60,842 bases of DNA. It comes from Candidatus Flavonifractor merdavium. Lineage in GTDB: Bacteria > Bacillota > Clostridia > Oscillospirales > Oscillospiraceae. Below are positions 34,735-51,881 of the stretch, in pieces. The stretch is taken from assembly GCA_019119335.1 (NCBI GenBank), contig DWXF01000043.1, forward strand, positions 1 to 60,842, in the 5' to 3' direction. The notes beneath the pieces were generated by a model, which ran no database searches, had not been told where the DNA came from, and worked only from the letters and a program-made list of their open reading frames with translations. Each line of letters starts with the position of its first letter. Positions within the stretch are counted from its first letter, which is position 1. The position numbers and the translations under genes were made by a program.

Positions 34735-34777
34735 AAAGCAAGCCGTCTGCCCTTGTGGCAGACGGCTTGCTTTTTTA
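34735..34777. terminator. Bidirectional terminator after rubrerythrin
   Basis: Stem AAGCAAGCCGTCTGCC/GGCAGACGGCTTGCTT, then TTTTT on plus and A-rich/T-rich flanks on both strands. The histidine kinase gene ends at its right edge. Confidence 0.9.
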
Positions 34778-36031
34778 TGTGCTTTTGGGCAGCAGAACGG
34801 TAAAAACAGTGCCGCTCTCCACGGCGCTGGAGACAGAGATCCTGCCGCGGTGGTGTTCCACGATGGCTTTGGCAATGGCCAGGCCCAAACCATAACCGCC
34901 CTGTGCCCGGTTCCGGGCGGCATCCGCCCGGTAAAACCGCTCGAACAGGTGAGGCAGGTGCTCCGGCGGAATGGGTGCGCCGGTGTTGCGGACGGTAAGG
35001 CGCAGTTTGTCCTGCTGCCGGGTCAGGGTGAGGCTGACGGCTCCCTCCGCGTCGGCATATTTGACGCCGTTGTCCAGCAGGATCCGCACCAGACGGCGGA
35101 GCTGGGCCTCATCCCCTGTCAGTATCAAGCCGGGGTCCACCTGGGCGTCCAGGCGGACCCCAGCTTCAAAGGCCACAGGCTCAAACGGAAGCAGGCAGCC
35201 CTGGACCAGCTCGCTCAGATCCACCTGGGCAGTCTGAAATTCCTGCCGGGCGGCATCCGACTTGGCCAGAAAGAGCAGGTCCTCCACCAGACCTTTCATC
35301 TGGCGGGCCTCCTCCTGGGTATATTCCAGCCATTTGGATTGGGCAGACACGGTGTCCGACGGATGGGCGAGCACAATGCCGGTATTGGCCAGGATGACGG
35401 TAAGGGGAGTTTTCAGTTCATGGGAGGCGTCCGCCACAAACTGCCGCTGCTGCTTCCAGGCCGTCTCCACCGGCCGCAGAGCCAGGGAGGAGAGGAAGAG
35501 CCCCACAAAGAAGAAGGCGGCCATGGCCAGCGCCCAGACCAGCAGACAGTTCAGGATCAGGGTGCGCAGGGAGCTGCTCTCCCAGCTCTGGTCGGCAAAC
35601 GCCACCCGTACCGTGCCGTCCGGCCGGGTTTCCAACTGGAACCGCAGATTCAGCCTGCGCAAAATGCCGCTGTCTTCGCCGCTTGCCAGGGCTTCCGCCG
35701 CCGCCAGCTCTGCCGTCTCCCGGGAGACCTCCACCTGACCTCCGTCATTGATGCTGGTGACGACGCCGTCCTCCACGGTAACCACAAAAACCGGAACCAT
35801 GGTAAACCGGCTGCCCTCATCTGACGGGTTGTGGTCGGGAGGGGGAGCGCCGATCTCAAACCGGGGATTCTCGTCCTCCCGCCAACTGAGGGCCATACGC
35901 ATAGCCGCCTGGCTCTGGTCGGCGTACCGCCGGGCATTGGAGGCCACCAACAGGACAAAGACAACAGTCAGCACCACGCCAACCAGCAGGAGATTGATCA
36001 GGATAAACTTCCGGCGCAGCCGTCGAATCAT
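34775..36031 (-). CDS. Sensor histidine kinase
   Basis: 418 aa. TM1 about residues 9-30, a ~125-residue extracytoplasmic domain, TM2 about 157-184, then a kinase core: H-box FVADASHELKTPLTVILAN (His 204), N-box LLDNGVKYADAEG, G-boxes QGGYGLGLAIAKAIVEHHRG. It is similar to envelope-stress or peptide-sensing kinases of Firmicutes. Its ATG (36031) forms ATGA with the stop of the repaired response-regulator frame, so the pair were built as coupled genes. The signal sensed is unknown. Confidence 0.93.
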   Translation of the reverse strand: MIRRLRRKFILINLLLVGVVLTVVFVLLVASNARRYADQSQAAMRMALSWREDENPRFEIGAPPPDHNPSDEGSRFTMVPVFVVTVEDGVVTSINDGGQVEVSRETAELAAAEALASGEDSGILRRLNLRFQLETRPDGTVRVAFADQSWESSSLRTLILNCLLVWALAMAAFFFVGLFLSSLALRPVETAWKQQRQFVADASHELKTPLTVILANTGIVLAHPSDTVSAQSKWLEYTQEEARQMKGLVEDLLFLAKSDAARQEFQTAQVDLSELVQGCLLPFEPVAFEAGVRLDAQVDPGLILTGDEAQLRRLVRILLDNGVKYADAEGAVSLTLTRQQDKLRLTVRNTGAPIPPEHLPHLFERFYRADAARNRAQGGYGLGLAIAKAIVEHHRGRISVSSAVESGTVFTVLLPKST

Positions 36032-36704
36032 TCAGCCGGCACCTCCAGATAGTAGCCCACCTTGCGTACGGTACCGATGGCAACACAGGAGGAGAGAAAG
36101 GTCAGCTTTTTCCGAAGGAAGGAGATATAGACCTCCACATTGTTATCCTCAGCGTCAGACTCCAGACCCCAGACCCTGGAAATGATGTCCTCCTTGGGTA
36201 CACGGAGCGGGAGTGCTGCATCAGCAGGCGGAGAATGTCAAATTCCTTAAAACCCAGGCGCACAGACTTGGCGCCGCAGCGCAGGCAGCGGGTGGAGAGC
36301 TCCAGGGTCAGGTCTCCGGCGGTGAGTTGCTCGCCGATTACCTCGCCCTGCCGACGGGTCAGGGCCCGCACCCGGGCCAGCAGTTCCCCGATATCAAAGG
36401 GCTTGGTCATGTAGTCGTCCGCCCCGTGGTCCAGGCCGGCAATTTTGTCAGGCATCTCATCCCGGGCGGTGAGCATGAGGATGGGCGTGGATATGTGGGC
36501 GCACCGCAGCCGCCGGGCCACCTCAAAGCCGTCCACCTTGGGCAGCATCACATCCAGAATAATGGCATCGTACTGCCCTGTCAGGGTGTAGTCTAACCCA
36601 TCCGCGCCATCGTATACCAGATCGGCCAGATACCGCTGTTCCGCCATAATCTGCCCCAGCGCCTCCGCCAGGCGCTGCTCGTCCTCCACAATCAAGATCC
36701 GCAT
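36028..36704 (-). pseudogene. OmpR/PhoB-family response regulator with a 1-nt frameshift
   Basis: The frame from ATG 36704 gives a normal receiver domain (ILIVEDEQRLAEALGQIM, IILDVMLPKVDGFE with phosphoacceptor Asp, TKPFDIGELLARV) and the start of a winged-helix output domain, then breaks at residue 168 and stops at 36102 with 32 aberrant residues. Inserting one base at about 36200/36201 (GTG-TAC becomes GTG-GTA-CCC) restores PKEDIISRVWGLESDAEDNN, NVEVYISFLRKKL and GTVRKVGYYLEV, ending at 36028 in an ATGA overlap with the kinase; the repaired protein is 225 aa. As read, the recognition helix is lost. It may be a true mutation or a base-calling error. Confidence 0.88.
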
Positions 36705-36734: not shown

Positions 36735-36767
36735 ATCATACCTCTGAAAACTGAAATTTGCCTGAAG
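36735..36767 (-). promoter_or_regulatory. Direct-repeat operator and -10 of the two-component genes
   Basis: Minus strand CTTCAG-N5-TTTCAG (36767-36751), 10 nt, then -10 TATGAT (36740-36735). A further TTTCAG lies at 36749-36744. The 17-nt element matches the one at 36832-36848 at 14 of 17 bases and has the same distance to -10. Confidence 0.65.
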
Positions 36768-36831
36768 AAAATCATAGCGCAGATGGAAGAAAAAAGGATT
36801 TACAGAGTGTTAACAATTTATGGTTTCCTTT

Positions 36832-36864
36832 TTTCAGGGTAATTTCAGCTTGCGGCACTATACT
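36832..36864 (+). promoter_or_regulatory. Direct-repeat operator and -10 of the exporter operon
   Basis: TTTCAG-N5-TTTCAG (36832-36848), 10 nt, then -10 TATACT (36859-36864), with no good -35. The 11-nt repeat period and position over the -35 fit a PhoB/VanR-type activator. Confidence 0.7.
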
Positions 36865-36900: not shown

Positions 36901-38694
36901 ATGCAGCTCATTGCGGTAAAAAAGGGAAAACTGGCCCCGGAAATTCAGACACCACCGGCTCCAGATAAGCCACGGAGAAAGATATCGCCCAAGCGGCTGA
37001 TCCTGTTGGCGGTGGTGGTTGCGGCGGTGGCCGGAGGCGCGGCGGGTATCGGGCAGCTGTTCTTTTCTCAGGAGGAACGGACAGCTCTGACAGAGCGGAC
37101 CACCTACGGCAGTCTCGCCACCACCATTGAGGGGACGGGAACCACCGTGCCGGCGGACAGCGTGACCTACACCGCCGCCTCGGACAGCGAAATCACCGGC
37201 GTCTATGTTTCGGCCGGAGATACGGTGGAGGCGGGCCAACTGCTATATACTCAGGATTCCACCGAGCTGGATGAACAGATCGAGACCTACCAGGACGAGA
37301 TTACCGAATTGGAGAACACTCTGTCCGACGCCCAAAGCCAGCTGGCCGAGCTGAACGAAAGCATGGCGGCTCTGTCGGTCACCGCGCCTTTTTCCGGGCG
37401 GATCACCGATGTGACCGCAGAGGTGGGAGACAGTGTAAACGCGGGAACCAGGCTGGCCACCCTGGTGGATGACAGCCAGATGACCCTGACCCAGTATTTC
37501 AGCTACGCCTATGAGGATCAGGTCCATGTGGGTATGGAGGCAGGCATTTCCGTGGCCAGCCTGATGCGCACCTTTGAGGGGACCGTAACGGAGATCAAAA
37601 AGGTGGACCGGGTTACCACAGAGGGTACCCGCTGCTTCGCGGTGACCGTGACCGTGGAAAATCCCGGCGCGCTTACCGAAGGAATGAGCGGCGCGGGCTA
37701 CCTGGTGGCCGACTCCGGAGAGAAGCTTTATCCAGCGGTGGAGGGGACCCTGGAGTACTACGCCAGCAAAGACATTGTGGCGGAGGTGGGCGGGGAGCTG
37801 ACCGCTGTCAATATCTCTGACTACGAATCGGTATCCAAAGGCACGCTGCTCTTTTCCGTGGACGGCTCGGACCTGAAGAAGCAGGTGGAGTCGGTGGAAC
37901 GGAGCATTACCCAGACCCAGGACAAAATTACCCAGACCCAGGAGAAGATCACCCAGACTGAGGAGCAGCGGGCGGACTATAACGTGACCGCGGAGATTTC
38001 CGGCAAGGTGATTATGGTGGGGCTGCAGGAGGGGGAGAGCCCTCGCCAGGCGGGGCAGACCGCCGTTACCCTGTATAATATGGACTCCATGACCATCACC
38101 GCCAACATTGACGAGCTGGACATAGACAACATCACCATGGGTATGGAGGTTGACGTTACCCAGACCGGGGCGGAGACCGACACCCACTATACCGGCACGG
38201 TAACGGCCATCAGCTACGAGGCCACCAATACCAACGGCGTGGCCTATTTCCCCATCACCATCACTATCCCCAGCAATGGAGCGCTCTCCGCCGGCGTCAA
38301 CGTGTCCTACACCATTACCGTGGGAGACGAGTCTGAAGGGGTGCTGGCCCCCATCGCCGCCCTCCAGAGTACCACAGAGGGCGTCTGCCTGTTCGTCAAG
38401 GCGGACAGCCGGCCGGACAACGCGGTGGATCTGGAGGATGGCGTGGTGCCGGACGGATTTTACGCCGTTCCGGTGGAGACTGGTGTATCCAACAGTCAGT
38501 ATGTCCGCATTCTCTCCGGTGTGGAGGAGGATGTGGAGGTCTTTACCCGCTATCAGCAGGCCGCGCCCTCCGGCGGAGATACCACCAGTCAGGGAGAGAG
38601 CGGACAGGAAATAGAAGGCATGCCTGATTTCTCCGGCGGGGGCGGAATGCCCGGCGGCATACAGGGCGGTATGGGCGGCGGGCCCATGGGTTAA
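36901..38694 (+). CDS. Membrane-fusion adaptor (HlyD/MacA family) with duplicated barrel module
   Basis: 597 aa from ATG 36901 (GGGAGG 9 nt upstream). A short cytoplasmic start, one TM helix (about 35-60: LILLAVVVAAVAGGAAG), then two lipoyl-like/barrel-sandwich units, each split by a coiled-coil hairpin: first around ITGVYVSAGDTVEAGQLLY and FSGRITDVTAEVGDSV, second around LTAVNISDYESVSKGTLLFS and ISGKVIMVGLQEGESPR. The second hairpin has ITQTQDK/ITQTQEK/ITQTEEQ repeats. A beta-barrel part (ITANIDELDIDNITMGMEVD) and a Gly/Met-rich tail (GGGGMPGGIQGGMGGG) end it. It should couple the following ABC transporter to substrate outside the membrane. Confidence 0.9.
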   Translation: MQLIAVKKGKLAPEIQTPPAPDKPRRKISPKRLILLAVVVAAVAGGAAGIGQLFFSQEERTALTERTTYGSLATTIEGTGTTVPADSVTYTAASDSEITGVYVSAGDTVEAGQLLYTQDSTELDEQIETYQDEITELENTLSDAQSQLAELNESMAALSVTAPFSGRITDVTAEVGDSVNAGTRLATLVDDSQMTLTQYFSYAYEDQVHVGMEAGISVASLMRTFEGTVTEIKKVDRVTTEGTRCFAVTVTVENPGALTEGMSGAGYLVADSGEKLYPAVEGTLEYYASKDIVAEVGGELTAVNISDYESVSKGTLLFSVDGSDLKKQVESVERSITQTQDKITQTQEKITQTEEQRADYNVTAEISGKVIMVGLQEGESPRQAGQTAVTLYNMDSMTITANIDELDIDNITMGMEVDVTQTGAETDTHYTGTVTAISYEATNTNGVAYFPITITIPSNGALSAGVNVSYTITVGDESEGVLAPIAALQSTTEGVCLFVKADSRPDNAVDLEDGVVPDGFYAVPVETGVSNSQYVRILSGVEEDVEVFTRYQQAAPSGGDTTSQGESGQEIEGMPDFSGGGGMPGGIQGGMGGGPMG

Positions 38695-38706: not shown

Positions 38707-39435
38707 ATGAGTCTGATCCGACTGGACAATGTCTATAAAATTTATGCGCAGGGACAGGAGAACCAGGTCAACGCCCTGGACGGGGTGACGCTGGAAATTC
38801 AGCGGGGGGAGTTTGTGGACATCATCGGCACCTCCGGTTCCGGCAAGTCCACCATGATGAATATTCTGGGCTGTCTGGACGTGCCCACCTCCGGGGCGTA
38901 TTACCTGGACGGTACCCCCATCAGCGGTCGGAGCCGCCGGGAGCTGGAGCTGATCCGCTCCCGCAAGATTGCCTTTATCTTCCAGGGCTACAACCTGATC
39001 CCCTCGCTGAACGTGTGGCAGAATGTGGCCCTGCCCATGCTGTACCAGAAAATTCCCCTGGTCCAGCGGCGGGCCCGGGCGCTGGAGGCCCTGGAGCGGG
39101 TGGATATTGCCGCCAAGGCCAACAGCCGCCCCGGCCAGCTCTCCGGCGGGCAGCAGCAGCGGGTGGCCATTGCCCGGGCCATTGCCGCCCGCTCGCCCAT
39201 CCTCATGGCCGACGAGCCCACCGGCGCGCTGGACTCCAAAACCGGCGCCCAGGTGCTGGCGCTGATGCGGGAGATGAACCGGGAGGGTACTACCGTGATC
39301 CTCATTACCCACGATAACGGCATCGCTGCCCAGGCCGACCGCACCGTGCGGGTGATGGACGGAAAAATTGTCCATGACAGCCTGTGGGACGGCGTGCTGG
39401 TGGACCTGCCCGTGTCCCGGGCGGTGGCGCCGTGA
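38707..39435 (+). CDS. ABC transporter ATP-binding protein (MacB/LolD type)
   Basis: 242 aa. Walker A GTSGSGKSTMMNILG near residue 40, Q-loop FIFQGYNLIPSLNVW, signature LSGGQQQRVAIARAIA, Walker [14 protein letters not shown]-loop LITHD. The sequence pattern (NILGCLDVPTSG, EPTGALDSKTGAQV) is that of MacB-like exporters' ATPases. 12 nt after the adaptor and overlapping the permease start as GTGA, so all three form one unit. Confidence 0.95.
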   Translation: MSLIRLDNVYKIYAQGQENQVNALDGVTLEIQRGEFVDIIGTSGSGKSTMMNILGCLDVPTSGAYYLDGTPISGRSRRELELIRSRKIAFIFQGYNLIPSLNVWQNVALPMLYQKIPLVQRRARALEALERVDIAAKANSRPGQLSGGQQQRVAIARAIAARSPILMADEPTGALDSKTGAQVLALMREMNREGTTVILITHDNGIAAQADRTVRVMDGKIVHDSLWDGVLVDLPVSRAVAP

Positions 39436-40613
39436 ACGCAGTGCGGATGGCTCTGGATTCCATCGGGGACAAGAAGGGCCGGTCCTTTCTCACCATGCTG
39501 GGTATCATCATCGGTGTGACGGCGGTGCTGGTGCTGGTGGCCCTGGTGTCGGGATACAACGCGGATATTACCGCCTACTATGAAAAGCTGGGTGTCAACA
39601 AGGTCAACGTCACTGTCAGCTGGTACGACACCAGCCGGTCGGTGGATGTGATGGACGCTTTGTATGACTACGGCAATCAGGAGCTGTCCGATATGGTGGA
39701 GGGGGTGAGTCCCGACCTGTCCACCTCGCTGCCCATCAAGCGCCGAACAACCACCCTGGACAGCGGCAGCGTGTACTTTGGCAGCGACCAGTACGCCGCC
39801 TGCAACAACTACACGCTGGAGAAGGGCCGGGATATCAATGCCTTTGATATCCAGCAGCGCAACATGGTGTGCGTGCTGGGCTCCTATGTGGCGGACAGTC
39901 TGTTCCAGTATGCCGACCCCATCGGAGAGACTGTGTACATTGGCGGCAACCCCTTCACCGTGGTGGGGACTTACTACCAGAAGGACGGGGGCACAGAGGG
40001 CTCGATGGACGATATGGCGGTGATCCCCTACTCTCTGAACCGGGCCATTTTAGAGAGCGATTACCTTACCTCCTTTACGGTGAAGGTGGATACCTCTGAC
40101 CATATGGACGCGGTCATGACCAGTCTGGAGGTGTTTCTGGCGGACGCGATTCCTTCCACCGTGGGGGAGTATGAGCTGGAGAACGGCAATTCTGCCATGA
40201 CCGAATCTACTGAGGAGACCACCTCCATGAGCGTGGTGCTGGGAGGTATCGCCGGAATTGCGCTGCTGGTGGGCGGTATCGGCATTATGAATATCATGCT
40301 GGTCACCGTCACCGAACGTACCCGGGAAATCGGCATCAAAAAGTCCATCGGTGCGCCCCGTGGAGAGATCGTGGGCCAGTTTCTGGTAGAGGCCGCCATT
40401 CTCAGCGGGATGGGGGGCGTGATCGGGATCCTGCTGGGCTTTGGCCTGAGCCTGGTGCTGGGTAAGGCCATGTATGATTTGATTTTGCTGCCGGGCGGAT
40501 TGGTGACGGCGGGAGCGTTCCTGTTCTCGGTGGTCATCGGCATTGTGTTCGGCATTTATCCGGCGCTGAAGGCGTCCAACCTTCAGCCGGTGGACGCCCT
40601 GCGGGCAGATTGA
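39432..40613 (+). CDS. ABC transporter permease (MacB/FtsX family)
   Basis: 393 aa from GTG 39432, overlapping the ATPase stop by 4 nt. Four TM helices: one N-terminal (FLTMLGIIIGVTAVLVLVAL), then a ~200-residue periplasm-equivalent domain, then three C-terminal ones (VVLGGIAGIALLVGGIGIMN; GGVIGILLGFGLSLVLG; GAFLFSVVIGIVFGIYPAL). Family motif VTERTREIGIKKSIGAPRGEI is present. It works with the adaptor and ATPase as a mechanotransmission-type exporter. Confidence 0.94.
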   Translation: MNAVRMALDSIGDKKGRSFLTMLGIIIGVTAVLVLVALVSGYNADITAYYEKLGVNKVNVTVSWYDTSRSVDVMDALYDYGNQELSDMVEGVSPDLSTSLPIKRRTTTLDSGSVYFGSDQYAACNNYTLEKGRDINAFDIQQRNMVCVLGSYVADSLFQYADPIGETVYIGGNPFTVVGTYYQKDGGTEGSMDDMAVIPYSLNRAILESDYLTSFTVKVDTSDHMDAVMTSLEVFLADAIPSTVGEYELENGNSAMTESTEETTSMSVVLGGIAGIALLVGGIGIMNIMLVTVTERTREIGIKKSIGAPRGEIVGQFLVEAAILSGMGGVIGILLGFGLSLVLGKAMYDLILLPGGLVTAGAFLFSVVIGIVFGIYPALKASNLQPVDALRAD

Positions 40614-40633: not shown

Positions 40634-42667
40634 TTGAAGCGAAAAGTTCTTGCCCTGCTGACGGCGGGCGGGCTGTGCCTGACTCTGGCGGCCCTGCCCG
40701 CCCCGGCGGAGGCCTTAACCGATGTCAGCGGGGACACCGCTTTGGCGGTGGAGGTGCTGACCAGCCTGGGGATTGTCTCCGGCTACGCCGACGGCGCCTA
40801 CCATCCGGAGGACGGCCTGACCCGGGCCCAGTTCTGCAAGCTGGCGGTGCTGGCGGAGGGACATGGGGATCAGGTGAGCGGCAGCGCTTACCGCACCCTC
40901 TTTTCCGATGTGGCTGGAAGCCATTGGGCCGCGCCCTATATCAACCTGGCCTACGAGGAGGGGCTGGTCTCCGGCTACGGAGACGGCTCCTTTGGCCCGG
41001 ACGACCCGGTCACGGTGGGTCAGGCGGTCACGGTGGCGCTCCATCTGCTGGGCTACACCACGGAGGATGTGGGGCCTTTCTGGCCGGAGGACTACATGAG
41101 CCTTGGGGAGAAGCTGGGCCTGCTGGACGGGATCTCCGCCAATGCTTCCCACGCCCTCACCCGGGGCGAGGCGGCGTTGCTGCTATACAGTATGCTATCC
41201 ATGCATGACCGGGACGGGGGCGACTATATTGATAAGCTGTGCGCCTCCAAGGTCGCCGATGCAGTCCTGCTGGACGTGGATGCAGAGGGTGAGGACGGGA
41301 CCGGCGGACTGGTGCAGGTGTGTACCACCCAGGGCGTGAGCTATTACCAGTCCGCCCAGGACCTGCCGGAAACGCTGGAGGGCAGCCGGGGGACCCTGCT
41401 GCTGGATCAGGCGGGAGAGACCGCCGGTTTTCTCCCGGATGGTACCATCAGCCGCACACTGACGCTGGCGGAGGTAGATGCCAACGGGGTTACTGATACT
41501 TCCGGCGGGTTTTACAGTGTTTCCAACTCCGCCAATGTGCTGCTGGACGATACGCTGGCGGCATACAGTGTCTGCTGGTATGATCTGGACGGCCGGGACA
41601 CCGTTACGCTTTACTATAACGAAAAGGGTGTGGTGGACCTGGTGACCGCCTCTCAGGTGACAGCCTACGAGGGAGTTTTGCTCAGCGGCTACTATGAGGA
41701 TGCCAGCCCCAACGCCACGTCCCCCGACACCATCACGCTTCTGGGGCTCCAGCTGGCGGTGGCGGACAGCGGCCGGAGCAGCCTGAGCCAGTTTGAGGTG
41801 GGAGACCGGATCACCGTCACCCTCAATGGGGAGGGGGAAGTGGTATCCGCGGTGTCTTACAGTGAGCGGCAGGCCGACCTCTATGGAATGCTGCAAAACG
41901 GACAGGTGACGCTGACCTGTGGCCTGACGGTAAAGGGGGCCCTTACCGGCAGCGGGGAGGAGGGAGACCTGGTAAGGGTCGTCTCCACCGGTATGGGAAC
42001 GCTCTCGGCCTCTCCGGCGGAAAAGACGGTCTCGCTCTCTCTGGATCTGACCCGAAATACTCTGGGCAGCATCCCGCTGGCGGAGGATGTAGCGGTCTAC
42101 GAGCGGGTGAAGGACAGCCCGGCGGTGGAGATCGACCTGGAGGACATCCTGGTCAGCACAGTCTCCGCTTCCCACATTGATTTTTACGCCACCAACGACC
42201 AGGGAGAGGTAAATCTCCTCCTGCTGGACGATGTGGCCGACAACGCCTATACCTATGGCAAGATTTATAGCTGGAGCGAAACTGTGGGTCAGACGGAGGA
42301 GGATTCTTACACGGTAAGAAAGGTGTCTCTTTCCAACAGCAGCGGAACGAGCCAGGAGTATACCGCCATCCTCTCGGTGACAGGCGGAACCATGGGCGGC
42401 ATTGCGGCAAATGCGGAGGGAACCGTGGTGGGTACCGCCGAACTGACAACGGTGCGGCAGGTGTCCCGCACCGACTTCGACGGCCAGGAGGCCGTGGTGG
42501 CCGACGGAGTGCAGATTCCCGTCAGCAACCAGGTGGAAGTGTACAACTCGGACACCGGGAACTGGATCACGCTGGCTCAGGCCAAGGCCTACACCGATAC
42601 CTTTACCATCTATTACAGCGGTACGCTGGGGGTGGATGCGGTGGTGCGCGTCATTGTAACCCAATAA
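40634..42667 (+). CDS. Secreted S-layer homology domain protein
   Basis: 677 aa from TTG 40634 (AGGAGG 9 nt upstream). Signal peptide KRKVLALLTAGGLCLTLAAL with cleavage near AEA-LT, then three SLH repeats (LTSLGIVSGYADGAYHPEDG; FSDVAGSHWAAPYINLAYEE; LGEKLGLLDGISANASHALT) up to about residue 190. The remaining ~480 residues are beta-rich, Asp/Gly/Ser/Thr-rich, with no family I recognise. Only 20 nt separate it from the MacB-type permease, so it is the fourth gene of that operon. It should be bound to the cell wall by its SLH part. Confidence 0.9.
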   Translation: MKRKVLALLTAGGLCLTLAALPAPAEALTDVSGDTALAVEVLTSLGIVSGYADGAYHPEDGLTRAQFCKLAVLAEGHGDQVSGSAYRTLFSDVAGSHWAAPYINLAYEEGLVSGYGDGSFGPDDPVTVGQAVTVALHLLGYTTEDVGPFWPEDYMSLGEKLGLLDGISANASHALTRGEAALLLYSMLSMHDRDGGDYIDKLCASKVADAVLLDVDAEGEDGTGGLVQVCTTQGVSYYQSAQDLPETLEGSRGTLLLDQAGETAGFLPDGTISRTLTLAEVDANGVTDTSGGFYSVSNSANVLLDDTLAAYSVCWYDLDGRDTVTLYYNEKGVVDLVTASQVTAYEGVLLSGYYEDASPNATSPDTITLLGLQLAVADSGRSSLSQFEVGDRITVTLNGEGEVVSAVSYSERQADLYGMLQNGQVTLTCGLTVKGALTGSGEEGDLVRVVSTGMGTLSASPAEKTVSLSLDLTRNTLGSIPLAEDVAVYERVKDSPAVEIDLEDILVSTVSASHIDFYATNDQGEVNLLLLDDVADNAYTYGKIYSWSETVGQTEEDSYTVRKVSLSNSSGTSQEYTAILSVTGGTMGGIAANAEGTVVGTAELTTVRQVSRTDFDGQEAVVADGVQIPVSNQVEVYNSDTGNWITLAQAKAYTDTFTIYYSGTLGVDAVVRVIVTQ

Positions 42668-42712: not shown

Positions 42713-44149
42713 TCAGGGGAGAAGTACCTCGTCCTCGGCGGTCAGACCTTGCAGGATCTCGGTGTACCCGCCGCCGGAGATGCCGGTCTCCACCTCTATT
42801 TCCACAGTCTTTCCGTCCCTCAGAACCTGTACGGTACCGCCGCTGACTGCCTGGGACGGAATCCGAAGGCAGTTTTCCTTCCGATCGGTAATGATGGCTA
42901 CATTGACGTTCATTCCGTCCCGCAGCCCATCGGTGCTGTCCAGCGTCAGCTCCACAGTGTAGTCGGTCACGCCGCCGGAGGTGATGCCGGTGTCGTCGAT
43001 GCGCGCCACTGTGGCAGTGTAGCTTCGGGGCTGTCCGCTGTCGTCGGTAAAGGCCACCTTGGTCTGCTGACCAGGCCAGATGCGCTCAATGTACTGCTCG
43101 TTGATGTCGGCGTGGACGCACAGCTCCTCTGGCTGAGCCAGCACCGCCATGGGGGTGCCCGCCGACGCCAGATCCCCCAGCTTTACCGACCGGGTGAGGA
43201 TCACGCCGTCCACCGGCGCCAGAATGGTGTAATCCGCCCGTTTGGACTGGAGCTGCTCCAGGGAGGTGCGGGCCGATTCCACCGACAGGGAGGCGTTGGT
43301 TACCGCGTTGGTGAGGCTGTCGTTTTTAATGGTCATCACAGTCTGCCCCACGGTGACAGCGGAGCCGGCCTGGATGGGCAGGGTGAGCACCTGCCCGGAT
43401 TGGGTGGCGTAGATGGTCTGTTCAGTGGCGTTGGATACGGTGCCGGATTCCATGCAGACGGCGGAACCCACAGCGGCGGAAGCGGAGTCTCCGCTGAGTA
43501 CTGTGCCTGGATTTTGGAAGGAGAACTCCACATAGACGCCGGTCCGCCCGCCGGACAGGGCGCTGGGGGTGTCGTAAATCCGCTCCACCGTGCCGGTTAC
43601 CGTTTCCGCCCGGTTGGGGAAGGAGATCACCGCGGAGGCCCCCGGCGCAAGAGAGGCGGCATCCTCCACCCAAAAGGGAACAGTGAGCTTCAAATTCTGG
43701 CTGTCCACCACCTGGGCAATGGGACTGCCTGTGGAGACATAATCTCCCACGTGGACATTAACCGCAGTAACGGTGCCGGCGGCGTAGGAGGTTACGGTCA
43801 GGTCGGCGCAGGCAGCCTGTGCCTGACTGAGGGAGGCCTGGGCGCTGTCCAAAGAGAGCGCGGCCTGTTCGATCTGGTCTTCCAGATCTCCGGCATCCAG
43901 CTCATACAGGGTTTGGCCTGCACTTACGGTATCGCCCTCCTCAAAGGAACAGGAGATCACCGTGCCGTTGAACTGGGGTACAATATTGTAATTGTCTCGG
44001 TAAGTGACGGTACCCGTGTCCTCCACTGTGTTTTCCACCGGCCCGGTGTCAGGGAAAACAGTGGCGCGGTCCTTGCCCTCGCCGTTGGAACAGCCAGTCA
44101 GCAGCAGCAGGCCCAGCGTACAGGCCACAGCCTTTTTCCCATACTTCAT
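42713..44149 (-). CDS. Adaptor lipoprotein (HlyD/MacA family)
   Basis: 478 aa from ATG 44149 (GGTGGAG upstream). Lipoprotein signal KYGKKAVACTLGLLLLTGCS with lipobox LTGC. Barrel-sandwich halves GTVISCSFEEGDTVSAGQTL and AAGTVTAVNVHVGDYVSTGS flank a short coiled coil; a second pair, TIYATQSGQVLTLPIQAGSA and LAPVDGVILTRSVKLGDLAS, repeats the pattern, so this adaptor too has two modules. Beta-barrel and membrane-proximal parts follow. Last gene of the ATPase-permease-adaptor operon. The exported substrate is unknown. Confidence 0.9.
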   Translation of the reverse strand: MKYGKKAVACTLGLLLLTGCSNGEGKDRATVFPDTGPVENTVEDTGTVTYRDNYNIVPQFNGTVISCSFEEGDTVSAGQTLYELDAGDLEDQIEQAALSLDSAQASLSQAQAACADLTVTSYAAGTVTAVNVHVGDYVSTGSPIAQVVDSQNLKLTVPFWVEDAASLAPGASAVISFPNRAETVTGTVERIYDTPSALSGGRTGVYVEFSFQNPGTVLSGDSASAAVGSAVCMESGTVSNATEQTIYATQSGQVLTLPIQAGSAVTVGQTVMTIKNDSLTNAVTNASLSVESARTSLEQLQSKRADYTILAPVDGVILTRSVKLGDLASAGTPMAVLAQPEELCVHADINEQYIERIWPGQQTKVAFTDDSGQPRSYTATVARIDDTGITSGGVTDYTVELTLDSTDGLRDGMNVNVAIITDRKENCLRIPSQAVSGGTVQVLRDGKTVEIEVETGISGGGYTEILQGLTAEDEVLLP

Positions 44150-44201
44150 CAGCTCCACCCCTTTTGACCAGGAAACTGTGATATGTTTTATATAACCGGG
44201 C

Positions 44202-46514
44202 TCACTCGACACTTTTCAGCGCGCCCAGCATGTCGATCTCCCGCATTTTCCGTCCGATTACCACATTGACACCCAGGGCGAACAGCATGGTCACGCCGCA
44301 GGACAGGCCGATGGCCTTGGGCGTGATCATCACCTCCAGAGGCATAGAGGTAATGGAGAGGATGAGAAAACGATCCAGGGCGATACCCAGCGGAATGCCC
44401 AGCAGAATACCGGCGGCGGCGAAGATCAGGTTTTCACTCAGCTGAAGCCGCTTGATCTCCCGCTCGTAAAAGCCCAGCACCATCAGCGTGGCCAGGCTGC
44501 GAAGCTGCTCAAAAAAGCTCATGATCCCCAGGTTATAGATGACGATGCAGGCAAGCCCGCCGCCAAAGACGATGAGGATATATACCACCATGGAGGTATT
44601 CTCCATCTTCTCCACCACGGCGGCGGTGACGGTCTCCCGGCTCTGCCAGCCATCCACGAAATCATAGTGGTCCAGCTCTGTCTCCAGGGCGACAGGGTCG
44701 GCGGCGGTCAGGTAGGCCGCCGTTGGGATATATGCCCGGCCCAGGCTCCGCCACAGGCTGCGGCTCACATAGGCTCCGCTGACGCAGCGGTTGACTTCCG
44801 CCACGGTCAGGGTGATATAGCCGTTTTCTCCGGTGAACCGGAGGGTGATGGAATCCCCCTCCGCCAGACCCAGCTCATCCGCCAGCTGTTTTTCCAATAC
44901 CAGTCCCTTCCGGGGAAGGGACAGGGGGGCGGAGGCGTAGGGATCGTACAGGTGAAGGGATACGGCGTCCTCTGCCACTGTCAGGGTGGTGGTGGCCCGC
45001 TGGCTGCTGCTGTACAGCCAGCAGGTGGTGGTCATCTCCAGCTCCGCTCCGGTGACGCCGGGGGCGGAAACCAGCCGGCTATACTGGCGCTCCGTTACCG
45101 AGGTATTCAGACTGACCATCACATCATAGCGGTTCTGATTGCCCGCCAGGGCGTCGGAGTAGGCGTCCATCGAATCCTTAATGGCAAAGGCCATGAACAC
45201 CAGCGCCATGCAGAAGGCGATGCCCACCACACAGGTGAGCATACGTACCTTGTTGCGGAAAGTGTTGCGCAGGATGTATTTCTGGTTGAAGCCTAGTCGC
45301 CGCCACAGGGGGCGGATATGCTCCAGAAAGAGGGAACCGCCGCTTTTGGGGGCCTTAGGGCGCATACATTGGGCGGGGGATTCCTTCAGCAGGGACCGGG
45401 CCACCAGCCAGGCGCTGCCGATGCAGCACAGGGCGGTGAGGCCCAGCGCCTGGCCCCAGGCATGGAAATCGTGGACGATTTCCATGGGGGGCAGGTCACA
45501 GCCGGTGGCGATGGTCCACACAATGAGGGCGGCAATATATTTGCCCAAAAGGGCGCCGATGGGAAAGCCGATCACTACCACCAGCAGCGCGTGGAGCAGG
45601 TAATAGACCAGAATAGTCCGGTCGGAGTACCCCAACGCTTTGAAGGTGCCGATGTCAGAGCGGGCGCTTTCGATGAGTCGGTTCATGGTGCTCACCATCA
45701 TCAGCACCGCGCACAGGAAAAACAGGGTGGGGAAGAAGGTGAGAATGGGAACCAGATTGTTTTTCCCTTCCATCAGGGAGTAGGCCTGCTGATTGTCCTC
45801 CAGAGCCAGAATATTGACCACCTTGCTGCCCAGAACGTCGTCCACGGCGGCGCGCAGCTGCGCTGCGGACATGGCTTCGCTGGTAGTAATGCAGAACTGA
45901 TTGTAGATATGGGGGCCCATGACATCCTGAAGGGTCTCCTCCTGCACATAGGCAAAGCCATACCGGGACAGGTCCGGGGAGGGGGTGGTGGCGTTAACGG
46001 GATAGAGGTATTCCGGATCCTTTCCCACACCGCACACCTGAAGCCGCAGATGGATACCCAGGCCGGTGAGGGTAAGCTCATACCAGTCGCCCACCCGCAG
46101 GCCTCTGGCCTGGGCAAACTGGTCGCTGAGGAAGATCTCCTGACTGTTGGCGGGAAGCCTTCCCTCGGTGATATAGGGGGTATTGATGCTCCAGTCGGCG
46201 GGAATTCCGCAGAGGGAGAGGGTAATGTCGCTGTTGTGACGCTCCTCCGCGTCCAACAGAATCTGGGGCTGCACGCCGGTGATCCCGTTCAATCCCTCCA
46301 GCGCCCGGCAGTCCGCCATGTCCAGCCCCACGCCGGTGAGCCAATAGTCGGCCACATTGTGTTCCGTATAGTAGCGCCCCATGATCCGGTCCACATTGTA
46401 GATGATTCCGTTGAGGCCGGTGTATACCACCACGGCGATCATGGTAATGATGCTCACGGAAATGAGCCGGGAGGCGGTGCGCCGCAGATCCCGGAAAAAA
46501 TTTTTCCAGATCAT
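44202..46514 (-). CDS. ABC transporter permease with two FtsX domains
   Basis: 770 aa from ATG 46514, one nt after the ATPase stop. An N-terminal TM (ISVSIITMIAVVVYTGL), an extracytoplasmic domain, three TMs ending the first FtsX domain (ILTFFPTLFFLCAVLMMVST, then SARSDIGTFKALGYSDRTI), followed by a second TM/extracytoplasmic/TM set (VRMLTCVVGIAFCMALVFM; VYILIVFGGGLACIVIYNLG; FALGVNVVIG). Double-FtsX permeases of this size act alone in lipid, peptide or envelope-stress ABC systems. The companion adaptor suggests export. Confidence 0.92.
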   Translation of the reverse strand: MIWKNFFRDLRRTASRLISVSIITMIAVVVYTGLNGIIYNVDRIMGRYYTEHNVADYWLTGVGLDMADCRALEGLNGITGVQPQILLDAEERHNSDITLSLCGIPADWSINTPYITEGRLPANSQEIFLSDQFAQARGLRVGDWYELTLTGLGIHLRLQVCGVGKDPEYLYPVNATTPSPDLSRYGFAYVQEETLQDVMGPHIYNQFCITTSEAMSAAQLRAAVDDVLGSKVVNILALEDNQQAYSLMEGKNNLVPILTFFPTLFFLCAVLMMVSTMNRLIESARSDIGTFKALGYSDRTILVYYLLHALLVVVIGFPIGALLGKYIAALIVWTIATGCDLPPMEIVHDFHAWGQALGLTALCCIGSAWLVARSLLKESPAQCMRPKAPKSGGSLFLEHIRPLWRRLGFNQKYILRNTFRNKVRMLTCVVGIAFCMALVFMAFAIKDSMDAYSDALAGNQNRYDVMVSLNTSVTERQYSRLVSAPGVTGAELEMTTTCWLYSSSQRATTTLTVAEDAVSLHLYDPYASAPLSLPRKGLVLEKQLADELGLAEGDSITLRFTGENGYITLTVAEVNRCVSGAYVSRSLWRSLGRAYIPTAAYLTAADPVALETELDHYDFVDGWQSRETVTAAVVEKMENTSMVVYILIVFGGGLACIVIYNLGIMSFFEQLRSLATLMVLGFYEREIKRLQLSENLIFAAAGILLGIPLGIALDRFLILSITSMPLEVMITPKAIGLSCGVTMLFALGVNVVIGRKMREIDMLGALKSVE

Positions 46515-46515
46515 G

Positions 46516-47244
46516 CTACCACTCCAGCTCCTGCACCGGTACCGGATTGGGATTTTCCGTAAAGGACTCAATTTTACCGCTTTTCATGCGGATGAGTACG
46601 TCGGCGGTGGGGGCCAGGGCTCCGTTGTGGGTGACCACCACTACCGTCTTTTTACTCTTCTTACACAAGTCGTAGAGCAGGGCCAGAATGGCCTTGCCCG
46701 TCACATAGTCCAGCGCGCCGGTGGGCTCGTCGCACAGCAGCACGTCGGGATTTTTGGCCAGCGCCCGGGCAATGGCGCCCCGCTGCTGTTCGCCGCCGGA
46801 ACACTGGGCGGGGAAGTTGCCCAGCCGGTCGCCCAACCCCACCATGTCCAGCACCTGTCTGGCGTCCAGGGGATTTTTGCAGATCTGGCTGGCCAGCTCC
46901 ACATTTTCCAGTACCGTCAAGTTGGGCATCAGGTTGTAAAACTGGAACACAAAGCCGATGCTCTCCCTCCGGTACTGGGTGAGCTGCTTCTTGTTGAAGC
47001 TGGAGATCTCTTTATTATTCACAGTTACCAATCCGGAGGTAGGGGAGTCCATCCCGCCCAGAATGTTGAGCACCGTGGACTTGCCTGCGCCGCTGGCGCC
47101 CAGGATGATGGTGTACTTCCCTTCCGGGATGGAAAAGCTCACATCGTCTACCGCACGAATGGTGGTTCTGCCCATGACATACTCCCGCACCACGTGTTCC
47201 AAACGCACTCCGGACACAAACCCCACCCCTTCCAACGGTTGCAT
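46516..47244 (-). CDS. ABC transporter ATP-binding protein
   Basis: 242 aa. Walker [19 protein letters not shown]-loop [16 protein letters not shown], signature [16 protein letters not shown] (Cys replaces the usual Leu), Walker [14 protein letters not shown]-loop VVTHN (Asn in place of the common Asp after His). ATPase of the following FtsX permease. The ATG at 47244 has no clear Shine-Dalgarno and sits only ~13 nt from the predicted transcript start, so a GTG near 47217 or 47208 could be the real start. Confidence 0.92.
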
Positions 47245-51837: not shown

Positions 51838-51881
51838 TGCCGCCTTCACAAAGTGTTTACAATTCTACGGCGAAAACTGCC

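What the first reader, a model, noticed from the sequence alone, without database searches (positions are those of the whole stretch)
36735..36864. Duplicated 17-bp operator placed identically before two divergent promoters
In the 196-bp gap between the response-regulator gene and the exporter adaptor gene, TTTCAG-N5-TTTCAG (plus, 36832-36848) and CTTCAG-N5-TTTCAG (minus, 36767-36751) agree at 14 of 17 bases. Each is followed by exactly 10 nt and then a -10 box (TATACT or TATGAT) with no good -35. The 11-bp repeat period and the distance fit an OmpR/PhoB-type activator binding over the -35. This makes the adaptor-ATPase-permease-SLH operon a likely direct target of the adjacent two-component system, with autoregulation.
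Basis: partly seen in the sequence, partly recalled or inferred. Interest (0 to 1): 0.75.

Follow-up and report, generated by a model that had tools for sequence, protein, structure and literature searches.

The report
CiaR-like operator pair controlling an exporter
A gut bacterium carries two matching regulator-binding sites, kept across its relatives at one fixed distance from two back-to-back promoters, which very probably let a sensor-regulator pair switch on both itself and a neighbouring export pump.

Summary
Both 17-mers and both 10-nt spacers are as described; they are the only two exact YTTCAG-N5-TTTCAG sites in this 2.76-Mb draft genome. All 8 genus loci with this regulator/exporter arrangement keep both operators and both spacers. 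In one more distant genome regulator and exporter lie about 300 kb apart and each keeps the operator. TTTCAG-N5-TTTCAG-N10-TANNNT occurs in 103 of 400 family genomes (reversed control: one hit); the spacer peaks at 10 (50 of 81). In a 30-locus sample, 25 loci have a site directly before an OmpR-type regulator, kinase or exporter gene. The architecture matches CiaR-activated promoters (TTTAAG-N5-TTTAAG, 10 nt, -10) with one base changed per half-site: it works like CiaR without being CiaR. The window's own regulator gene is broken in its DNA-binding domain. Binding and activation are inferred, not shown.

The parts
36832..36848 (+). Operator before the exporter operon: TTTCAG-N5-TTTCAG
   Evidence: Present in 8 of 8 genus loci (CTTCAG first half in L006); 14 of 17 columns invariant.
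36859..36864 (+). -10 box TATACT of the exporter promoter, 10 nt after the operator
   Evidence: All 6 columns invariant in 8 loci. A 10-nt spacer is the family-wide peak.
36751..36767 (-). Operator before the response-regulator gene: CTTCAG-N5-TTTCAG
   Evidence: Kept in 8 of 8 genus loci, 7 of them as TTTCAG-N5-TTTCAG; 12 of 17 columns invariant.
36735..36740 (-). -10 box TATGAT of the regulator promoter, 10 nt after the operator
   Evidence: a TAnnnT hexamer at the same spacing in 8 of 8 genus loci.
36799..36815 (.). Central element TTTACAGAGTGTTAACA (minus strand TGTTAA-N5-TGTAAA), a WalR/PhoP-box-like direct repeat of 11-bp period, 33 bp upstream of the + operator
   Evidence: 17 of 17 columns invariant in 8 loci with a constant 33-bp distance. 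Once per genome in 11 of 20 genus genomes, reversed control 0. Consensus TGTWAH-N5-TGTWAH seen in a passage of PMC9210968.
36102..36704 (-). OmpR/PhoB-type response regulator gene; receiver domain intact, reading frame broken in the DNA-binding domain (200 aa open against 225 aa in most relatives)
   Evidence: Pfam finds Response_reg but no Trans_reg_C in the window protein, and both in the relative L003.
34775..36031 (-). Sensor histidine kinase (HisKA, HATPase_c)
36901..38694 (+). Exporter adaptor (HlyD/RND_mfp type)
38707..39435 (+). MacB-like ABC ATPase
39435..40613 (+). MacB/FtsX-type permease
40634..42667 (+). SLH-domain protein at the end of the presumed operon

Best explanation
The gap holds two oppositely facing promoters of one type. 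Each lacks a recognisable -35 box and carries an 11-bp-period direct repeat TTTCAG-N5-TTTCAG exactly 10 nt before the -10. A tandem dimer of the phosphorylated OmpR/PhoB-type regulator coded next door (or its intact orthologue) binds each repeat, stands in for the -35 contact, and recruits RNA polymerase. It thereby switches on its own regulator-kinase operon and the adaptor-ATPase-permease-SLH export operon together. Shown: sequence, spacing, conservation, association with this regulator clade, and persistence where regulator and exporter genes are apart. Inferred: binding, dimer geometry, activation rather than repression, operon structure and the signal. The central WalR/PhoP-box-like repeat probably gives a second regulator access to the exporter-side promoter (weaker inference).
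For: Exact sites and 10-nt spacers; the only two such sites in the genome. Both kept in 8 of 8 genus loci with this gene order, and in degenerate form in L032 and L034. 103 of 400 family genomes have TTTCAG-N5-TTTCAG-N10-TANNNT; one control hit seen in the 400 rows. With a spacer free from 5 to 16 in 120 genomes, 50 of 81 listed matches have 10 and no other value has more than 5 (recounted; 6 hits for the reversed pattern). Of 30 sampled site loci, 25 have a site 49-85 nt before the start of a regulator (16 loci, one of them also before the adaptor), an ABC ATPase (7), this adaptor (1) or a kinase (1) on the same strand. Upstream of 83 regulators, 47 carry a TTTxAG repeat scoring 8 or more of 10 at spacer 10, against 0.25 expected from shuffles: 34 of the 70 taken from the list and 13 of 13 chosen because their loci were already in hand. 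In G096 the regulator promoter (about 1,436,450) and exporter promoter (about 1,739,200) are some 300 kb apart and each keeps the operator. In L059-L061 the regulator keeps its operator (one mismatch in L060) although the divergent gene is not the exporter. CiaR promoters share the repeat period and the 10-nt spacer.
Against: No binding or expression data. The window's own regulator lacks a recognisable DNA-binding domain, so the operators may be unused in this strain unless the break is an assembly error. Three of 30 sampled loci showed no two-component or ABC neighbour with the queries used (L080, L085, L098), and L083 and L089 had one that was not directly downstream. Outside the family the motif is near chance: 10 of 37 matches at spacer 10, three of them from this genus, with 4 hits for the reversed pattern. 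Orthologues L035, L036 and L038-L042 (44-51% identity) show no clear operator; L037 (44%) does.
Confidence: 0.83

Rival explanations
1. The regulator binds the same sites but represses, because the sites overlap the -35 region; the promoters are otherwise self-sufficient.
For: The operator overlaps the -35 position.
Against: No sigma-70 -35/-10 pair is found in the gap. The fixed 10-nt spacer to the -10 across the family is what an activator that replaces the -35 contact needs, and it is the arrangement of CiaR-activated promoters.
Confidence: 0.1
2. A different regulator, for example the paralogous TTTCAG-linked clade (RRb) or another two-component system, is the main binder, and the adjacent pair is only one of several inputs.
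For: The RRb clade (about 50% identical) has the same operator, so cross-talk is possible; the window's own regulator is broken.
Against: One search counts seven regulators in this genome at its threshold; of the six besides the window's own I read three (L157, L192, L193), and they have other recognition helices and no TTTCAG repeat. The genome is only 82% complete. In relatives the site sits directly before this regulator.
Confidence: 0.1
3. The 17-mers are conserved by descent only (young loci) and have no regulatory role.
For: The genus loci are close relatives (75-84% adaptor identity).
Against: 86 of 212 alignment columns of the gap are invariant, against 14 of 17 and 12 of 17 in the operators and 17 of 17 in the central element. 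The same promoter type recurs before diverged regulators across the family.
Confidence: 0.03

Closest known systems
CiaR-activated promoters of streptococci (CiaRH; PMC3091779, passages seen)
   Same: Direct repeat of 6-bp half-sites with N5, then 10 nt, then -10; final G called essential; OmpR-type regulator with a similar recognition helix (VVEVYVSKVRKKL against NNVEVYISFLRKKL in intact orthologues).
   Different: Half-site TTTCAG instead of TTTAAG; different clade of bacteria; here the regulator is divergent from a MacB-type exporter operon, and a WalR-like box lies between.
Mycobacterium tuberculosis PhoP direct repeats (PMC4832192, passages seen)
   Same: Direct repeat of 7-bp motifs with a 4-bp spacer (11-bp period) bound by a tandem dimer; half-site TCACAG(C) shares the final CAG; PhoP is among the closest regulators of solved structure.
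   Different: Second and third bases differ; promoter position was not compared here.
WalR/YycF box TGTWAH-N5-TGTWAH (PMC9210968, passages seen)
   Same: The central element read on the minus strand, TGTTAA-N5-TGTAAA, is an exact match.
   Different: Not shown to be bound by WalR; the B. subtilis PhoP box (recalled) has nearly the same sequence.

Membership tests
OmpR/PhoB-type tandem-repeat promoters | Two half-sites repeated head to tail at 11-bp period | tested here: met
OmpR/PhoB-type tandem-repeat promoters | Repeat at fixed distance before the -10, no -35 | tested here: met
OmpR/PhoB-type tandem-repeat promoters | Adjacent regulator has receiver and winged-helix domains | tested here: inconclusive
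   Both found in the orthologue L003; in the window protein only the receiver domain.
OmpR/PhoB-type tandem-repeat promoters | Regulator binds the repeat in vitro | not testable with these tools
   Needs footprint or DAP-seq.
CiaR regulon | Half-site TTTAAG | tested here: not met
   TTTCAG in the 8 genus loci; an A in the fourth place occurs before more distant regulators such as L048 and L162.
CiaR regulon | N5 between half-sites and 10 nt to the -10 | tested here: met
   the CiaR values are.
CiaR regulon | Regulator is CiaR (recognition helix VVEVYVSKVRKKL) | tested here: not met
   Helix NNVEVYISFLRKKL in intact orthologues. None of the 25 NCBIfam models shown reaches its cut-off (best RppA, 210 against 250 bits for L003). 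No direct alignment with CiaR was made.
WalR box (central element) | TGTWAH-N5-TGTWAH | tested here: met
   Minus strand 36815-36799 TGTTAA-CACTC-TGTAAA; consensus.
WalR box (central element) | Bound by WalR in this organism | not testable with these tools
   No binding data; PhoP-type binding would look the same.

The most novel reading that the evidence does not exclude
These promoters belong to a family-wide promoter class of gut Oscillospiraceae in which one clade of OmpR-type regulators uses a graded half-site series TTTxAG (x = C, A or T) whose variable base follows the recognition helix. At the exporter locus the class is wired to a second, WalR-type input through the central box, so the exporter integrates a local signal and a cell-wall signal.
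Probability: 0.3. Interest if true: 0.62.

Novelty: new variant of a known kind. Interest (0 to 1): 0.47.

Why it matters
It gives a sequence rule (TTTCAG-N5-TTTCAG, 10 nt, -10) from which likely targets of a group of two-component systems can be read directly in gut bacteria that are hard to manipulate, and it predicts that a MacB-type exporter operon with an SLH protein is a direct target. The same rule with TTTAAG describes CiaR, so it links streptococcal and clostridial systems. The natural series of half-sites and helices makes DNA specificity of OmpR-type regulators testable with few mutants.

Tried and rejected
Helix-to-base code: among the 47 of 83 regulators with a good repeat, the residue before LRKKL goes with the fourth half-site base (F, 35 regulators: 63 C, 6 A, 1 T; Y, 5: 5 A, 5 T; N, 3: 5 T, 1 A; one each with A: 2 T; Q: 2 T; L: 2 C; M, the broken window gene: 2 C). 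On a quick tree of 46 of them the residue changes only 3 times, with 2 independent pairs on supported branches and a sign test at median p = 1. M. tuberculosis PhoP has Y there with C in the matching place of its half-site. Kept only as a lead. By helix type, a good repeat is found before 33 of 41 NxVE, 13 of 28 VW and 0 of 12 VD regulators.

Central element as a third site of the same regulator: considered, because the repeat has the same period and lies 33 = 3 x 11 bp from the + operator. Less favoured, because its sequence fits the WalR/PhoP box, it stays invariant in the three loci where the + operator is gone, and the distance is 32 bp in L120, L124 and L032 (L032 counted by eye). TTHACA-N5-TTHACA is enriched in four genus genomes (37 against 11 reversed; G009 alone only 9 against 6), but the conserved targets identified, hrcA and a MarR-family gene, did not decide between WalR and PhoP. 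Central element as a family-wide motif: rejected; TTTACAGNNNGTTAACA is found in 14 of 400 genomes, 7 of them with the AGT form (six genus genomes and G038, whose locus has this arrangement), the other 7 against 4 hits of the reversed control.

Literature: three searches for TTTCAG operators or Flavonifractor regulators listed nothing on this operator; the held library is partial.

Limits of the counts: the shuffles keep single-base composition only. The 83 regulators include near-identical pairs (L127 and L007 are one genome) and the broken window gene (L134). Loci L110-L115, L119 and L116, L124 repeat loci already held (e.g. L116 is L033, L124 is the G038 locus) and are not counted twice. The SLH query used in my scripts was read out of frame by one base; SLH hits printed by those scripts are not used. 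L006's regulator is present but broken.

Full report
What was checked. No sigma-70 type -35/-10 pair is found in the gap. With two mismatches allowed the pattern is not rarer than chance in the window (8 found, 5.7 expected), but the only two exact matches in the window and in the whole 2.76-Mb, 82%-complete genome are these two, with none for the reversed pattern.

Conservation. Of 20 genus genomes, 8 (this one included) hold a full-length adaptor at 75-100% identity. All 8 have the divergent regulator gene (broken in this genome and in L006), both operators and both 10-nt spacers. In the 8-way alignment 86 of 212 columns are invariant; the + operator has 14 of 17, the minus operator 12 of 17 (the variable columns are mainly the N5), and the + -10 box 6 of 6. 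The adaptor search in named genomes returned 17 loci; seven of the genus loci reappear there under Flavonifractor names, among them F. plautii ATCC 29863 (L115 = L008), so the window is very probably from that genus. Beyond the genus, L032 and L034 keep both sites in degenerate form, and the G038 locus (L084/L124) keeps both. L031, L033 (= L116), L117 and L118 (59-69% adaptor identity) keep the + site, with TTTAAG as first half in L033 and L117, though no regulator was found next to the exporter. L120 keeps the + site and has the regulator, with its own operator, about 0.8 kb away. Against: L035, L036 and L038-L042 (44-51% identity) show no clear site; L037 does.

The operator follows the regulator. 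In the 20 genus genomes, sites of the form YTTCAG-N5-TTTCAG-N10-TA occur in 12. Ten further places outside the exporter loci, carrying such a site or the central element, were fetched (L059-L068): all 10 contain either this regulator-kinase pair (regulator 67-85% identical) or a paralogous pair (50-55%; only a 62-residue regulator match in L064) with its own ABC ATPase. One further match, G016:C2, was not fetched. In a 30-locus sample from 400 family genomes (one locus per genome, as the tool returned them), 25 loci have a site 49-85 nt before the start of an OmpR-type regulator (16), an ABC ATPase (7), this adaptor (1) or a kinase (1); 2 have such a gene nearby but not directly downstream, and 3 have none. 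In G096 the regulator and exporter lie about 300 kb apart and each has the operator and the 10-nt spacer. This is the natural test of regulation at a distance. Upstream of 83 regulators (42-100% identity to the query, the query included), 47 have a repeat scoring 8 or more of 10 on TTTxAG positions at spacer 10; shuffled upstream sequences give 0.25. Split by origin this is 34 of the 70 taken from the list (26 of 62 below 70% identity) and 13 of 13 chosen from loci already in hand.

Family-wide promoter type. TTTCAG-N5-TTTCAG-N10-TANNNT occurs in 103 of 400 family genomes; I saw one hit of the reversed pattern in the 400 rows. Letting the spacer vary from 5 to 16 in 120 genomes, 50 of 81 listed matches have spacer 10 and no other spacer has more than 5; the reversed pattern had 6 hits. 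In the order outside the family the signal is weak.

Mechanism. Counting from the -10 box (-12 to -7), the repeat covers about -39 to -23, over the -35 position. This is the arrangement of CiaR-activated promoters: TTTAAG-N5-TTTAAG with the -10 ten nucleotides after the last half-site (PMC3091779, passages). M. tuberculosis PhoP, a relative of solved structure, binds its direct repeat as a tandem dimer (PMC4832192, passages). I therefore take the regulator as an activator of both its own operon and the exporter operon. A possible functional analogue in print is CiaRH regulating the efflux pump SatAB in S. suis (PMC9241815, title and start of abstract in a search listing only).

The central element. 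TTTACAGAGTGTTAACA (36799-36815) is invariant in all 17 columns of the 8 loci and lies exactly 33 bp before the + operator in each. It is found once per genome in 11 of 20 genus genomes. On the minus strand it reads TGTTAA-CACTC-TGTAAA, an exact match to the WalR consensus TGTWAH-N5-TGTWAH (PMC9210968, passages). In three sister genomes the exporter is replaced by an SPFH/Band-7 protein gene (Pfam on L060) with a TTGACA-N17-TATGAT-like promoter; there the + operator is gone but the central element and the regulator-side operator remain, the latter with one mismatch in L060. In L120, where the regulator's own promoter is separate, a diverged form of the element stays with the exporter operator. 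It is thus probably a second input on the exporter side, WalR- or PhoP-type; the two cannot be told apart here.

The broken regulator. The window's regulator is open for 200 codons but leaves the family sequence between about residue 168 and 183, and no DNA-binding domain is recognised, whereas orthologues of about 225 residues in relatives are intact. The orthologue in G010 (L006/L119) is also broken, at another place. Both are draft genomes, so sequencing or assembly error is possible. If the break is real, the operators in this strain have lost their local regulator.

Verdict. The finding is real, well conserved and in all likelihood functional. Its kind is known (OmpR/PhoB-type, CiaR-like), while its half-site, its clade, its family-wide use and the added central box are, as far as three searches of a partial library show, not described.

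Noticed in passing
36799-36815: Central WalR/PhoP-box-like repeat between the two operators, more conserved than either and once per genome in 11 of 20 genus genomes.
   Followed up: partly
36102-36704: Response-regulator frame broken in the DNA-binding domain; the orthologue in G010 (L006, L119) is broken at a different place. Intact copies exist in other relatives.
   Followed up: partly
L059, L060, L061: In three sister genomes the divergent exporter is replaced by an SPFH/Band-7 gene with its own consensus-like promoter, while the regulator, its operator and the central element stay.
   Followed up: partly
L062, L063, L064, L065, L067, L068: A paralogous regulator-kinase-ABC exporter locus uses the same TTTCAG operator before the regulator and/or the ABC gene.
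   Followed up: partly
51845-51861: TTCACA-N5-TTTACA repeat before a MarR-family gene in the same window (Pfam); a similar arrangement is seen in G009 (L217).
   Followed up: partly
42713-46571 (minus strand): A second HlyD-type adaptor and FtsX-type permease lie convergent to the exporter operon (Pfam); not studied further.
   Followed up: no
L066: In G004 the same regulator clade, with its operator, is divergent from a gene that looks like an SLH-domain protein (by eye) instead of the exporter.
   Followed up: no
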